Shown: one piece after another, positions 290-21,200 of the stretch
Layout of the letters: every line of letters starts with the position of its first letter
How positions within the stretch are numbered: position 1 is the first letter of the stretch
Source of the DNA: Apostichopus japonicus
Lineage: Eukaryota > Echinodermata > Holothuroidea > Aspidochirotida > Stichopodidae
DNA length: 64,000 nucleotides
NCBI RefSeq assembly: GCF_037975245.1
Contig: NC_092562.1
Coordinates: 31,312,554-31,376,553, forward strand
Direction: 5' to 3'
Position numbers and translations under genes: made by a program
Notes under the pieces: generated by a model
What the model was told of the DNA's origin: nothing
The model's database searches: none
Seen by the model: only the letters and a program-made list of their open reading frames with translations

Positions 290-3200
290 CTGTTTCAATG
301 GAGAGAGACAACCAGATTTATGAAAGAAAATTTAATTGATTTCACATAAGGAGGTATTATATGGTATTTTCAAGATAATTGACCAATATTTGCTGGAATG
401 TGCCTCTTGCTATCACCTGATCTCACGAACAGACTTCACCCAGGTGTATAAATGGGGACTTGCGTGGTGACTTGTAAATATAGTTGCATGCGCCGGTTTG
501 TGGCTGCACCCTATGGGAAGTCCCCCAGGGGACACGTGGCTGTGGTGCACTGTGGTGCTCCAGGAGAGATATCTTTCTTAGACATGTTCAAATCATTTTA
601 TCTTTTCACGTGCATGAAAAGTCACCACAAACACACAGATATCTCCAAAAGGTTTGTATGTTTGCTTTGCTTTGTGGGGTAGTTGTGTTGTGTTGTATAG
701 TGTGTGTTTTTTTTCGTCATGGCATGGCATGTTTGGTTCTGTTAATGACTCTTTCAACTTTCTCACAGGTAGGATGACAACTCAGGTCCATCCCACTCTA
801 TAATTAATTCTGTTTCTGCATGATATATCATGTCAGTGGCTCCAGTGGATCAGCTAGTGAGAAACAGCTACAAATACACTTACCTGATACTTAATAATCT
901 CCCAGGTGGGTTGACTAGATCCATCCCACTCTATCATTAATTCTGTTTCTGCATGATATATCATGTCAGTATCTGCAGTGCATTCTCCAGTGGATCAGCT
1001 ACTGAGAAACAGCTACAAATACAATTACCTGATACTTAATAATCTCCCAGGTGGGTTGACTAGATCCATCCCACTCTATCATTAATTCTGTTTCTGCATG
1101 ATATATCATGTCAGTATCTGATGTGCATTCTCCAGTGGATCAGCTACTGAGAAACAGCTACAAATACACTAACCTGATACTTAATTATCTCCCAGGTGGG
1201 TTGACTTGGTCTATCCCACTCTATAATTAATTCTGTTTCTGCATGATATATCATGTCAGTATCTGATGTGCATTCTCCAGTGGATCAGCTGAGAAACAGC
1301 TACAAATACACTTACCTGATACTTAATAATCTCCCAGGTGGGTTGACTTGGTCCATCCCACTCTATAATTAATGTTGTCTCTGTCATTTCTGTAACGTTG
1401 AGATTCCTTGGTGGGCCAGGTACTGAAGAAAAGAGTGAAAACATTGTTTTTTTAAATGCAGCTAACAAATTTATTAATAATTCTTATTCTATTCATGCAT
1501 CAAATTTCAGGCAATTGGTATACAAATGATTCCTTAAGATCTTCATATTCCTAATACTCAAATTAGACAATACATTACAATAGACCAATGTTCCTTTTCC
1601 TTCCACAATTGGACAGTAACATACAAAAGACATTTGGCTAACCACAAATGGACAAAGAAAGAATGAAAATTTTGGAGACTAAAAAGTATCCTTACACTTT
1701 GAATTTCTGTATCTTTCTGCTCTGAAATATGCAACGATATATTTGTGCATATGACTTTACAGCTGTAAATCATGACCCATCATTTTCTTGCTTCTGCAGG
1801 ATGGGAGGGGCAGGATTGGGGAGGGGCAGGGGAGGCACAGTATACAGCTAATTGTGCAAATTGTGTCTTAATCTAACTTCTTGTTACTTTGCATCACTTA
1901 CATGAGTCTACTGTAATGATGAGGGTTGGAAGACTCCACATGCCTGGTCCAAGTCTTGTGGTAGCACGAACCTATCAATAGAAACAACAAGGCCTTGGAG
2001 TTGTGGTATGGGGTTTACATTTGATGTCTTTTCCTTGTTCGCAAATGATTGGTCAATTTCTTGGGAACAGTTTTGCTACCAAGGCCTTTCCAGCTGTTTA
2101 ATATATAACTTCTTTATACCATTTACTGTTCTCTCTTAGTTAAGGGTGATTTTCTTAAGCTAGATCATGTACTAAACCGGTATTAATTGGTAATATAAAT
2201 CAAATAGTTTGACTTAATTAGCATACGCAATCATCAAAATATGTTCACAATGTATATGCAAAAAAGGTTGCTCATAGTGAATATAGAAACATTCATTTTA
2301 ATCTCAACATGACTAGACAGCTAAATCAAGGGCACCCCCTGGTGCATTTAGCCCTCAAAACACTCCATGTATGTAAAGATCAGTTATCAACTATAACTGA
2401 TTGTGTGTCTCCCCTGGTTGTTCAGCCCTTGGACCTCTACTAGTAGAGAGAGGCATTAAATTGCATGCTTTCCTATAAAATTCTGGAGAGTACCTCAGTA
2501 ATATTACAGAATATATCCCTTCCAAGAAATGAAAATATCTATAAATGTAGGACTCTGTGACTCAGTAAGACTTACCATAACAGAGTAAATAGTGACTGGC
2601 TTCAGATTATTGAGTGTGTAAGATGGTTGATTCTCTGGGATTATCTCAGCTACATCTAATCCTACTGTCTGAAGGGAAGAGATTTCGTCAGCAACTTTAA
2701 AAGAGATATCATAACCAGTGATGATGCCGTGAGGGGGGTCAGGCCTGACCCAACTGAGCAGAATGGTCGTCAATGTAGTAAATGAGGTGGATGGCGGGGG
2801 CAGCTGTGGGGGGACTATAAAAGACAAACAAATTACAGAAAGCATATTCAGGCTGAAATATGGAATGGATTAAACAATTATTTTCTTTAATTTCAGTTGT
2901 TTGCTCATAAGATTCTTGTTACTGTTGCCAATTTTGGAGAGCACGACTCCGCTCCATACAGCAATGGATTAATTGCCTAAATTGGATTCTAACTTTGAGA
3001 TAGGAAAAACCAGTTCTTGCTAAAGGTTGCTGGTCTTCTAATCAACAGAATCATAGCTGAATGCTAAATAGGACCTTTTTATCAATAACTGAACCATTAT
3101 ATCACAATTCCAGATTCCTATTAGTTATCTAAACTGTACATGAATACTCATACAAAATATACCAGGAAATAGAACGGGAAATTTCATTGTTTTACAATGT

Positions 3201-18200: not shown

Positions 18201-21200
18201 GTTCCTGTCTGACAATATTCATGAATTAATTAAGGTAATTTGCATCTAGTACACATGTACTGAAACTTTTTATTTGTACAGGTTCTGTGACTGTGACTAT
18301 GATGGCATGGTGTTGAGTGTTTACAGACACCTATAACTGTGAGGTTTGTGATGACAGGATGTTGACTTTACAAGACCTCTCAATTTGAGGTTTATGATGG
18401 CATGATGTTGAGTGTTTGCAGACACATATAACTGTGAGGAGGATGTTGACTATACAGGACCTTTCACTATGAAGTTTATGATGGAATAGTATTGAGTGGA
18501 ACATGTTAATACAGATCCAGGTGCCTCTATGAGGTTGTTGTTAACATATGGTAGTAATTAGGTGATTACATGATGGCATGGTATTGAGTGTTTGGAACAT
18601 GTTAATACGGATAATCGAAATACCTCTAACCATGAGGTTGGTGATATAGTTGGTATAAGTGATTATATGCTGCATATATACTGTACCTCTCACTATGAGG
18701 TTGGTGATATAGTTGGTATAAGTGATTATATGCTGCATATATACTGTACCTCTCACTATGAGGTTGGTGATATAGTTGGTATAAGTGATTATATGCTGCA
18801 TATATACTGTACCTCTCACTATGAGGTTGGTGATATAGTGGGTATAAGTGAATATATGCTGCATATATACTGTACCTCTCACTATGAGGTTGGTGATATA
18901 GTTGGTATAAGTGATTATATGCTGCATATATACTGTACCTCTCACTATGAGGTTGGTGATATAGTTGGTATATTAAGTGATTATATGCTGCATATATACT
19001 GTACCTCTCACTATGAGGTTGGTGATATAGTTGGTATATTAAGTGATTATATGCTGCATATATACTGTACCTCTCACTATGAGGTTGGTGATATAGTGGG
19101 TATAAGTGAATATATGCTGCATATATACTGTACCTCTCACTATGAGGTTGGTGATATAGTTGGTATAAGTGATTATATGCTGCATATATACTGTACCTCT
19201 CACTATGAGGTTGGTGATATAGTTGGTATAAGTGATTATATGCTGCATATATACTGTACCTCTCACTATGAGGTTGGTGATATAGTTGGTATAAGTGAAT
19301 ATATGCTGCATATATACTGTACCTCTCACTATGAGGTTGGTGATATAGTTGGTATAAATGATTATATGCTGCATATATACTGTACCTCTCACTATGAGGT
19401 TGGTGATATAGTTGGTATATTAAGTGATTATATGCTGCATATATACTGTACCTCTCACTATGAGGTTGGTGATATAGTTGGTATATTAAGTGATTATATG
19501 CTGCATATATACTGTACCTCTCACTATGAGGTTGGTGATATAGTTGGTATATTAAGTGATTATATGCTGCATATATACTGTACCTCTCACTATGAGGTTG
19601 GTGATATAGTTGGTATATTAAGTGATTATATGCTGCATATATACTGTACCTCTCACTATGAGGTTGGTGATATAGTCGGTATATTAAGTGATTATATGCT
19701 GCATATATACTGTACCTCTCACTATGAGGTTGGTGATATAGTCGGTATATTAAGTGATTATATGCTGCATATATATACTGTACCTCTCACTATGAGGTTG
19801 GTGATATAGTCGGTATAGTGATTATATGCTGCATATATACTGTACCTCTCACTTTGAGGTTGGTGATATAGTTGGTATAGTGATTATATGCTACATATAT
19901 ACTGTACCTCTCACTTTGAGGTTGGTGATATAGTTGGTATAAGTGATTATATGCTGCATATATACTGTACCTCTAACCATGAGGTTGGTGATATAGTTGG
20001 TATAAGTGATTATATGCTGCATATATACTGTACCTCTAACCATGAGGTTGGTGATATAGTTGGTATAAGTGATTATATGCTACATATATACTGTACCTCT
20101 CACTATGAGGTTGGTGATATAGTTGGTATAAGTGATTATATGCTGCATATATACTGTACCTCTCACTATGAGGTTCATTATGGCATGGTGCTGAGTGGCA
20201 TAGGTAGAGACTTCACTGTAGCATTCATATACTGTAGTATTCATAGCACTATTTTCCCCACATCTCTGTCCACCCTGACAGACAGTAAACGGTTGACCCT
20301 CAGGTATTCCATCCATAAGCCATCTGAGGTTGCTCAAGGGAATGGTCTCATCTCGTAGAACATAAAGCAAAAAATGATCTCCCCTGGAAACCACTGTTGA
20401 ATAACTCTCAGCTCGAATAACAGCTGAAAGAAATGAAAGACGTTCAGGGTAGTTTAAAACAATGTTTACAAATTCGCAATTTGGATGAGATGGGTGAAGT
20501 TGGTTAGATATGCATATACGACAGCAATTATAGCTAGCACAACAGTGTAGTGCTTTAGCACACAACAAATCTGTACACACAACAAATATGAAACAGTTTT
20601 CTGTCAAATCTCCATAGGCGTAGAAGCCTCATTTGAGTTGGGGGGGGGGCTGTAACGACTTGCCCGAAAAATGTAACCAAATTTTTCGCGCTCTCCGCAC
20701 GCGTTCAACATGTTAATGTGCATATCATATAGGCATTCATCGGTTATTACATCACGTGCCACTAACTGATGAATACTATATGATATGCACAGTAAGATGT
20801 TGAACGCGCACGGAGCGCGCGAAAAATTTTGGTTATATTTTCCTTGTTATTACCCTTCCATATTGGTTTTAATTGTAGGGGAAGTCGTTACAATAATAAC
20901 GATAATAACAACATCAGTTTAACTATTGAAAAACACATTGCAAATTACTCTTCTTTCAGTAGGTGCCCGAAAAATTCTCAGCATATTGCCCGAATTTTCA
21001 CACAAAAAATTGAAAACACACTGCAAATTTTTCTTCTTTCAGTAGGTGCCCGAAAAATTCTCCGCATATTGCCCGAATTTTCACACAAAAAATTGAAAAA
21101 CACAACTGCAAATTTTCCTTCTTTCAGTAGGTGCCCGAAAAATTCTCAGCATATTGCCCGAATTTTCACCAAAAATCTTGGTTGGGGGGGCTGCAGCCCC

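What the first reader, a model, noticed from the sequence alone, without database searches (positions are those of the whole stretch)
775..20178. Minisatellites in one gene repeatedly start at exon ends and copy the splice donor
Three arrays (775-1375, 7890-9320, 18638-20178) consist of units that each contain the 3' end of the neighbouring exon plus its donor site; a fourth (6363-7325) seems to carry a whole microexon, and a fifth (14625-17352) ends about 12 bases from a donor. Unit lengths and sequences are unrelated, so this happened several times. It suggests a local process that expands from exon-intron borders, for example replication slippage or repair at R-loops or splice sites, and fills introns with decoy donors. 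The sequence copies are seen directly; the mechanism is inference.
Basis: partly seen in the sequence, partly recalled or inferred. Interest (0 to 1): 0.88.

Follow-up and report, generated by a model that had tools for sequence, protein, structure and literature searches.

The report
Repeat arrays straddling exon edges
In one animal receptor gene several intron-filling repeat arrays grew from short duplications that straddle an exon edge and so copy a splice site again and again, a known but little-studied quirk of lancelet genes that is seen here in what looks like an echinoderm.

Summary
The arrays are real and at the stated places. They lie in a minus-strand Tie/TEK-like receptor gene whose 16 exons in the window chain into one open frame. 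Three arrays each repeat the 3' end of an exon with its donor (E14, E7, E1). The fourth is not a microexon array: it is the mirror case, repeating the ACCEPTOR side of exon E9. The fifth fills 98% of its intron and shows no exon sequence. Exon E3 has an old, decayed acceptor duplicate.

Paralogues show how this arises. All eight close members of a gene cluster carry the E7-donor array (2-11 units). In three of them the last decoy runs through an intact donor into the same ordinary intron sequence, as a tandem duplication straddling the donor would leave it. One paralogue, and by search hits two more, carry a separate donor array at E11 that the window gene lacks.

This is the phenomenon named 'mirages' in lancelets. 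The mitochondrial code here points to an echinoderm, so the phylum looks new. A special border-driven process is not needed: 4 of 8 arrays span a boundary against 1.5 expected (P about 0.04), and 0 of 38 sampled RRM/PDZ loci show it. Whether decoys are spliced needs RNA.

The parts
76..289 (-). Exon E15 (second half of an FN3 domain); its acceptor ends the intron that holds array 1
   Evidence: open-frame exon chain
1316..1422 (-). Exon E14 (first half of the same FN3 domain)
775..1373 (-). Array 1, unit 142-145 bp, about 4 units: last 58 bases of E14, donor CAG|GTAAGT and start of the intron; 3 decoy donors, two of them altered after the GT
   Evidence: no other match in the genome for array or exon
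6149..6353 (-). Exon E9
6326..7331 (-). Array 4, unit 86 bp, 10.4 copies by TRF plus decayed ones, acceptor-side: the exon-proximal diverged copy runs over the E9 acceptor about 28 bases into E9
7633..7694 (-). Exon E8, 62 bp, first part of the FN3 domain completed by E9; lies outside array 4
9204..9521 (-). Exon E7 (whole FN3 domain)
7896..9327 (-). Array 2, unit 131 bp, 11 units, the first being the coding end of E7 itself; 9 decoy donors AAG|GTAAGA
   Evidence: present in 8 of 8 close paralogues
13832..13987 (-). Exon E3
14048..14087 (-). Decayed single duplicate of the E3 acceptor and first bases of E3, 97 bases upstream of the real one
14515..14568 (-). Exon E2b, 54 bp
14623..17351 (-). 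Array 5, unit 59 bp, 46 units, 2729 of 2796 bases of the E2-E2b intron; starts 14 bases after the donor; no match to the neighbouring exon edges
   Evidence: array part found only at this locus
17365..17499 (-). Exon E2 (EGF-like)
20160..20423 (-). Exon E1
18621..20175 (-). Array 3, unit 62-68 bp, 24 units plus 16 bases of E1: exon end, donor GAG|GTACAG and intron; 24 decoy donors
   Evidence: no other match in the genome for array or exon
18290..18620 (-). Older decayed copies of the last ~38 bases of E1 (period about 46), behind array 3

Best explanation
These are boundary-spanning minisatellites ('mirages'). Step 1: an ordinary tandem duplication copies a segment of some 50-150 bases that happens to straddle an exon edge, taking along the end (or start) of the exon, its splice site and a little intron. 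Step 2: the copy next to the exon body keeps coding; the others become intron, so the event can be neutral if the exon-contiguous site is the one used. Step 3: unit number then changes by unequal exchange or slippage, and the intron grows with decoy splice sites. Shown: anatomy, gene model, paralogue series, and the junction of the last decoy with ordinary intron in three paralogues. Inferred: that the cell uses the exon-contiguous site, the mechanism of unit-number change, and neutrality.
For: 16-exon open frame, Tie2-like ectodomain. Three donor-spanning arrays and one acceptor-spanning array. 8 of 8 close paralogues carry the E7 array with 11, 7, 5, 7, 2, 4, 5, 4 units counting the coding one, against 0 of 13 more distant homologous exons, so it most simply arose once and its unit number keeps changing. 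In L010, L012 and L013 the last decoy runs through the donor into the same ordinary intron sequence. A separate E11-donor array (108 bp, 7.0 copies) in one paralogue, with matching array hits in two more; the window's E11 has none. 35 of the 36 decoy donors in arrays 1-3 would bring a stop into the message, so routine use is unlikely.
Against: No RNA was available: use of decoys is untested. In 5 of the 8 paralogues the last-decoy junction is not clean (L009, L015: donor lost; L011, L016: further decayed copies) or was not read (L014). Array 1's left edge ends inside a decayed copy. The acceptor case (array 4) rests on one alignment across the boundary; its exonic part alone is not significant. 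Array 5 fits only as an ordinary intronic minisatellite. The spanning excess (P about 0.04) leaves room for a mild border preference. Exon and decoys of array 2 differ unevenly (10 of 11 differences in the first 50 of 131 unit positions), which is not explained.
Confidence: 0.8

Rival explanations
1. A local process tied to exon-intron borders (R-loops, transcription-coupled repair, replication stalls) starts tandem duplications there.
For: 4 of 8 arrays span one boundary against 1.5 expected (P = 0.041), five large ones P = 0.011, uncollapsed introns P = 0.006; a further separate donor array in a paralogue; older and newer arrays at the same E1 donor; 5 of 16 exons of this gene against 0 of 38 sampled loci have a duplicated edge (Fisher P = 0.0014), though the gene was chosen for its arrays.
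Against: The excess in the placement test is small; acceptors are hit as well (E9, E3); 0 of 38 RRM/PDZ loci and 0 of 13 distant homologues of E7 show it; four of the eight arrays counted in the gene are purely intronic.
Confidence: 0.15
2. The arrays are functional: decoy sites regulate isoforms, or decoy use adds protein segments.
For: The first decoy of array 3 adds 63 bp (21 codons) in frame without a stop; the decoys of arrays 2 and 3 mostly keep the donor of the real site.
Against: 35 of 36 decoy donors in arrays 1-3 would put a stop into the message; unit number differs freely between paralogues, 2 to 11.
Confidence: 0.05
3. Intron gain by duplication of an exonic AGGT segment (Rogers / tandem genomic duplication).
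For: In the window gene alone array 2 can be read as 11 whole units starting at an exonic AGGT.
Against: Paralogues L010, L012, L013 show the last decoy reading AAG|GTAAAATTTT into ordinary intron, so the intron was there before; the E11 intron of the window gene also exists without an array.
Confidence: 0.03
4. Assembly artefact.
For: Tandem arrays are prone to misassembly.
Against: Units differ by point changes and indels; eight paralogues at separate places carry related arrays with their own variants.
Confidence: 0.02

Closest known systems
'Mirages' in lancelet (amphioxus) genes: Adh3, globins BflGb6 and BflGb9, PGBD5, troponin C (PMC3087553 section 16 read; PMC3902484 one passage read)
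   Same: Minisatellite-like tandem duplications spanning an exon-intron boundary, on the donor or the acceptor side, units of 10-160 bp, decoy AG/GT sites, unit number variable
   Different: Here the genome appears to be an echinoderm; four boundary-spanning arrays sit in one gene; eight paralogues give a series of unit numbers; splicing was checked by RT-PCR in lancelets and not here
Human internal tandem repeats at exon-intron boundaries in segmental duplications (PMC2812944, passages)
   Same: Minisatellites at exon-intron boundaries in recently duplicated paralogues, variable in copy number
   Different: There defined by altered exon or intron structure with transcript support; units average 30 bp
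Intron gain by tandem genomic duplication (review PMC3443670, passages)
   Same: Tandem duplication copies splice-site sequence inside a gene
   Different: Here the intron existed before; it was lengthened, not created

Membership tests
Mirage (boundary-spanning minisatellite) | Tandem unit contains an exon edge with its splice site | tested here: met
   A1, A2, A3 donors, A4 acceptor (across the boundary only); not met by A5
Mirage (boundary-spanning minisatellite) | The authentic exon is the boundary copy of the array and stays coding | tested here: met
   One open frame through E1, E7, E9, E14; 8 of 8 paralogous E7 exons without stops
Mirage (boundary-spanning minisatellite) | Unit number unstable | tested here: inconclusive
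   Differs between paralogues, 2 to 11 units; alleles of one locus not available
Mirage (boundary-spanning minisatellite) | Normal mRNA splicing despite decoy sites | not testable with these tools
   No RNA data; reported for lancelet genes (PMC3087553)
Intron gain by AGGT tandem duplication | Duplication creates a new intron inside an exon | tested here: not met
   Array 2: last decoy joins pre-existing intron in 3 of 8 paralogues; array-free E11 intron in the window gene. Not tested for arrays 1, 3, 4
Introner elements | Similar intron sequence dispersed over many unrelated genes | tested here: not met
   Array parts of A1, A3, A5 match one locus only; A2 and A4 only places on contig C2. The DNA search skips very common words, so this is not proof of rarity
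Echinoderm genome | Mitochondrial AAA = Asn, ATA = Ile, AGA = Ser, TGA = Trp (table 9) | tested here: met
   COX1 reads as a full protein with AAA at positions that I recall as conserved Asn in animal COX1 (no alignment to a database COX1 was run); ND4L between COX1 and COX2. Flatworms share the code; that this gene order is typical of echinoderms is recalled

The most novel reading that the evidence does not exclude
Boundary-spanning minisatellites are a recurrent route of intron growth in fast-duplicating gene families beyond lancelets, arising at exon edges more often than chance and loading introns with decoy splice sites, so that each such gene is a natural test of how the spliceosome picks one of many near-identical sites.
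Probability: 0.3. Interest if true: 0.65.

Novelty: new member of a known kind. Interest (0 to 1): 0.45.

Why it matters
One gene with 36 decoy donors in three arrays, with paralogues that have 2 to 11 units at one exon and arrays or none at another, is a ready-made series for asking how splicing finds the right one of many near-identical sites. It also carries the lancelet 'mirage' phenomenon into what looks like another deuterostome phylum and shows a plausible birth route: duplication of a segment that straddles an exon edge.

Tried and rejected
Microexon in array 4: rejected; the nearby 62-bp exon E8 lies outside the array and the array matches across the E9 acceptor.

AGGT-to-AGGT duplication as origin of array 2: suggested by the window alone, dropped after the paralogues.

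Concerted evolution pulling the coding end of E7 along with its array: no signal. Mean differences per site, exon versus own decoys and exon versus other paralogues' exons: 0.236 and 0.125 in unit positions 1-50, 0.072 and 0.061 in 51-119, 0.173 and 0.062 in 120-131.

Coding use of the 386-411 aa frames across array 3: the exon frame meets a stop in the second added unit, so I put the long frames down to the 63-bp unit.

Donor-only bias: 3 donor arrays and 1 acceptor array in the window gene plus a decayed acceptor duplicate; too few to claim.

Rows dropped before the placement test: TRF rows with periods under 30; overlapping rows of one array merged; 11033-11150 and 11150-11306 merged; 18298-18439 merged with array 3; rows outside E1-E15. 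The E3 duplicate was left out because it was found by a boundary search.

One search looked at 30 loci of the 68 matches. Nine (L024, L026-L028, L030, L031, L034, L035, L037) scored high because whole FN3 exons recur at 0.75-1.2 kb spacing; a nearer, weaker duplication in them could be masked, and they are left out of the 13 distant homologues. Several of those 13 are close copies of each other.

Background sample: one search flagged 0 of 30; one search flagged 1 of 38 at score 40 or more (L042), with L057 (39), L076 (37), L075 (35) and L039 (33) below the cut-off but above their reverse-strand controls. In L042 and L057 the array lies in the intron beyond the donor; in L039, L075 and L076 the match is AT-rich low-complexity sequence before the acceptor. 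L078 and L079, paralogues of each other, share a 14-base acceptor-like match far upstream, not counted. The sample relies on domain matches: edges far from the match could hide a short duplication, at least L045 has a 779-aa open frame and so no edge close by, some matches hold stops (L046, L047, L065), and some loci are paralogues of each other.
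Full report
What is there. The window is part of a 671.6-Mb animal genome of 35 contigs. Its left third holds a gene on the minus strand. Sixteen exons, each with acceptor and donor (one GC donor, E10), chain into a single open frame of 994 residues. Pfam finds five FN3 stretches well over the cut-off and two EGF models below theirs. The best matches among solved structures are TEK and angiopoietin-1 receptor chains, over residues 80-248 (E = 5e-28 and 2e-21). 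So it looks like a Tie-like receptor ectodomain.

The arrays. TRF places arrays at 840-1373 (145 bp; a partial copy reaches 775), 6428-7329 (86 bp), 7896-9327 (131 bp), 14623-17351 (59 bp) and 18621-20175 (63 bp). Split into units on the coding strand, arrays 1, 2 and 3 repeat the end of E14, E7 and E1 with the donor. They contain 3, 9 and 24 decoy donors that keep the exon end and the GT; in array 1 two of the three are altered after the GT. Using any of the 36 adds sequence with a stop, except the first decoy of array 3, which adds 21 codons in frame.

The exon next to it is E9, and a 62-bp exon E8 lies outside the array. The E9 acceptor region, 35 intron bases plus exon, aligns to the array with score 59; 0 of 500 dinucleotide shuffles reach it, mean 27. 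The exonic bases alone are not significant (64 of 500), the intronic bases alone are at the edge (0 of 500; highest shuffle 33 against 34), and the decayed piece between array and acceptor reaches 11 of 500. In a genome search the match of the boundary stretch to inner units of the same array runs on to 21 bases inside E9 (query 185-472, 86%), though most of that score comes from true units. So I read the array as repeating an acceptor. Array 5 takes 2729 of 2796 bases of its intron and leaves 14 bases at the donor and 55 at the acceptor; the exon edges beside it show no match to that intron above controls.

A comparison of all 32 exon edges with their neighbouring introns flagged four edges: E1, E7 and E14 on the donor side and E3 on the acceptor side. 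The E3 case is a single decayed copy 97 bases upstream (0 of 500 shuffles; place). The E9 edge only tied with its controls in that scan, which used exonic bases alone. Behind array 3 lie older copies of a longer piece of E1 with another period (0 of 500 shuffles for the whole exon end, 2 of 500 for the part outside array 3), so this donor was probably duplicated at least twice.

Chance. Eight arrays of period 30 or more lie between E1 and E15 after merging overlapping rows. If each first unit were placed at random, wholly in an intron or over exactly one boundary, with arrays collapsed, 1.5 of 8 would span a boundary; 4 do (P = 0.041). For the five large arrays P = 0.011; with introns at present length P = 0.006. 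The window was picked for its arrays, so these values overstate the case.

Relatives in the genome. The E7 exon with its array has seven close relatives on the same contig between 28.5 and 30.3 Mb. All eight have the 131-bp array after the donor, with 11, 7, 5, 7, 2, 4, 5 and 4 units including the coding one (TRF gives 10.9, 7.0, 4.6, 7.0, 2.0, 4.3, 4.9, 4.4 copies). Thirteen more distant homologous exons have none. In three of the eight (L010, L012, L013) the last decoy reads through an intact donor into the same ordinary intron sequence. That is what a tandem duplication straddling the donor leaves behind. In L011 and L016 further decayed copies follow, in L009 and L015 the last donor is lost, and L014 was not read because its units lack the search motif.

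One paralogue, L013, was read over 20 kb; 6 of the 16 exons matched there at the DNA level. It carries another donor array: 108-bp units, 7.0 copies, with the last 86 bases of E11. A search finds matching arrays in two more paralogues, while the window's E11 matches only through the exon and nine intron bases; beyond that the two introns show no convincing similarity. Arrays 1 and 3 with their exons have no other match in the genome, so those searches do not say whether diverged paralogues carry such arrays; for array 5 the exon E2 has weaker matches elsewhere but the array none. Relatives of array 4 occur at several other places on the same contig between 30.6 and 31.3 Mb.

Background. Thirty RRM-domain loci (108 matches listed) and eight PDZ-domain loci (67 listed), each with 1.5 kb on either side, gave no boundary-spanning duplication: 0 of 38 (flagged and near-flagged loci are told in Tried and rejected). 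The 95% upper bound is 7.6%. In the window gene 5 of 16 exons have a duplicated edge; Fisher's exact P is 0.0014, again with the caveat that the gene was chosen for its arrays. So this looks uncommon at exon borders of this genome, but it recurs in this gene family.

Species. Contig C35 holds mitochondrial COX1. Read with table 9 it gives a full protein; AAA, ATA and AGA fall at positions that I recall as conserved Asn, Ile and Ser in animal COX1, and ND4L lies between COX1 and COX2. This is the echinoderm code (shared with flatworms); the gene order as typical of echinoderms is recalled. The hits fall on contigs C1 to C23, which suggests some 22 chromosomes; a Tie-like receptor fits too.

What is known. 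The same thing was described in lancelets: tandem repeats spanning exon-intron boundaries, on either side, in Adh3 and globin genes, called 'mirages' (PMC3087553, section 16 read in full), and in PGBD5 with Adh and troponin C mentioned (PMC3902484, one passage). The lancelet authors report that regular splicing seems undisturbed and call the origin of the repeats unclear. The original 2002 paper on Adh is not held, nor are two papers on intron creation by duplication; I know them only through citing papers. Human repeats at exon-intron boundaries are described in PMC2812944 (outline and passages), intron gain by tandem duplication in the review PMC3443670 (passages). Searches joining minisatellites with echinoderms, donor sites, duplicated splice sites and intron evolution listed no paper that, by title and abstract start, deals with boundary-spanning arrays in echinoderms; the library holds open-licence papers only.

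Mechanism. I favour ordinary tandem duplication plus tolerance: a duplication inside an exon tends to break the frame, one inside an intron is neutral, and one across an edge is neutral as long as the exon-contiguous site is used. Growth then follows as in other minisatellites. A mild preference for borders is not excluded. Shown here are anatomy, chance level, paralogue series and junctions; splice-site choice and the cause of unit-number change are inferred.

Noticed in passing
58893-59107: A 53-bp array (4 copies) on the minus strand abuts, within a few bases, the likely acceptor of an exon of a second, lipase-like gene; its units supply the pyrimidine stretch but not the AG.
   Followed up: partly
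62695-63093: Exon with a Pfam Lipase match on the minus strand, possibly the same gene as the exon near 58.7-58.9 kb, which itself had no Pfam match.
   Followed up: no
40031-41026 and 43172-43747: The same 142-bp repeat unit occurs in two arrays in opposite orientation about 2 kb apart.
   Followed up: no
27970-29145: Reverse transcriptase frame of a LINE-like retrotransposon, Pfam RVT_1.
   Followed up: no
49896-49969: A tRNA-Ile (anticodon TAT) gene or tRNA-derived element.
   Followed up: no
4719-5030: Exon E10 uses a GC donor (GCAAGT), the only one of the 16 donors that is not GT.
   Followed up: no
7896-9327: The coding copy of E7 differs from the array consensus at 11 sites, 10 of them in the first 50 unit positions and 1 in the other 81; unexplained.
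   Followed up: partly
genome place C2:29743863-29744164 (not fetched): Array-2 units match here without a full E7 exon, perhaps a broken ninth gene copy.
   Followed up: no
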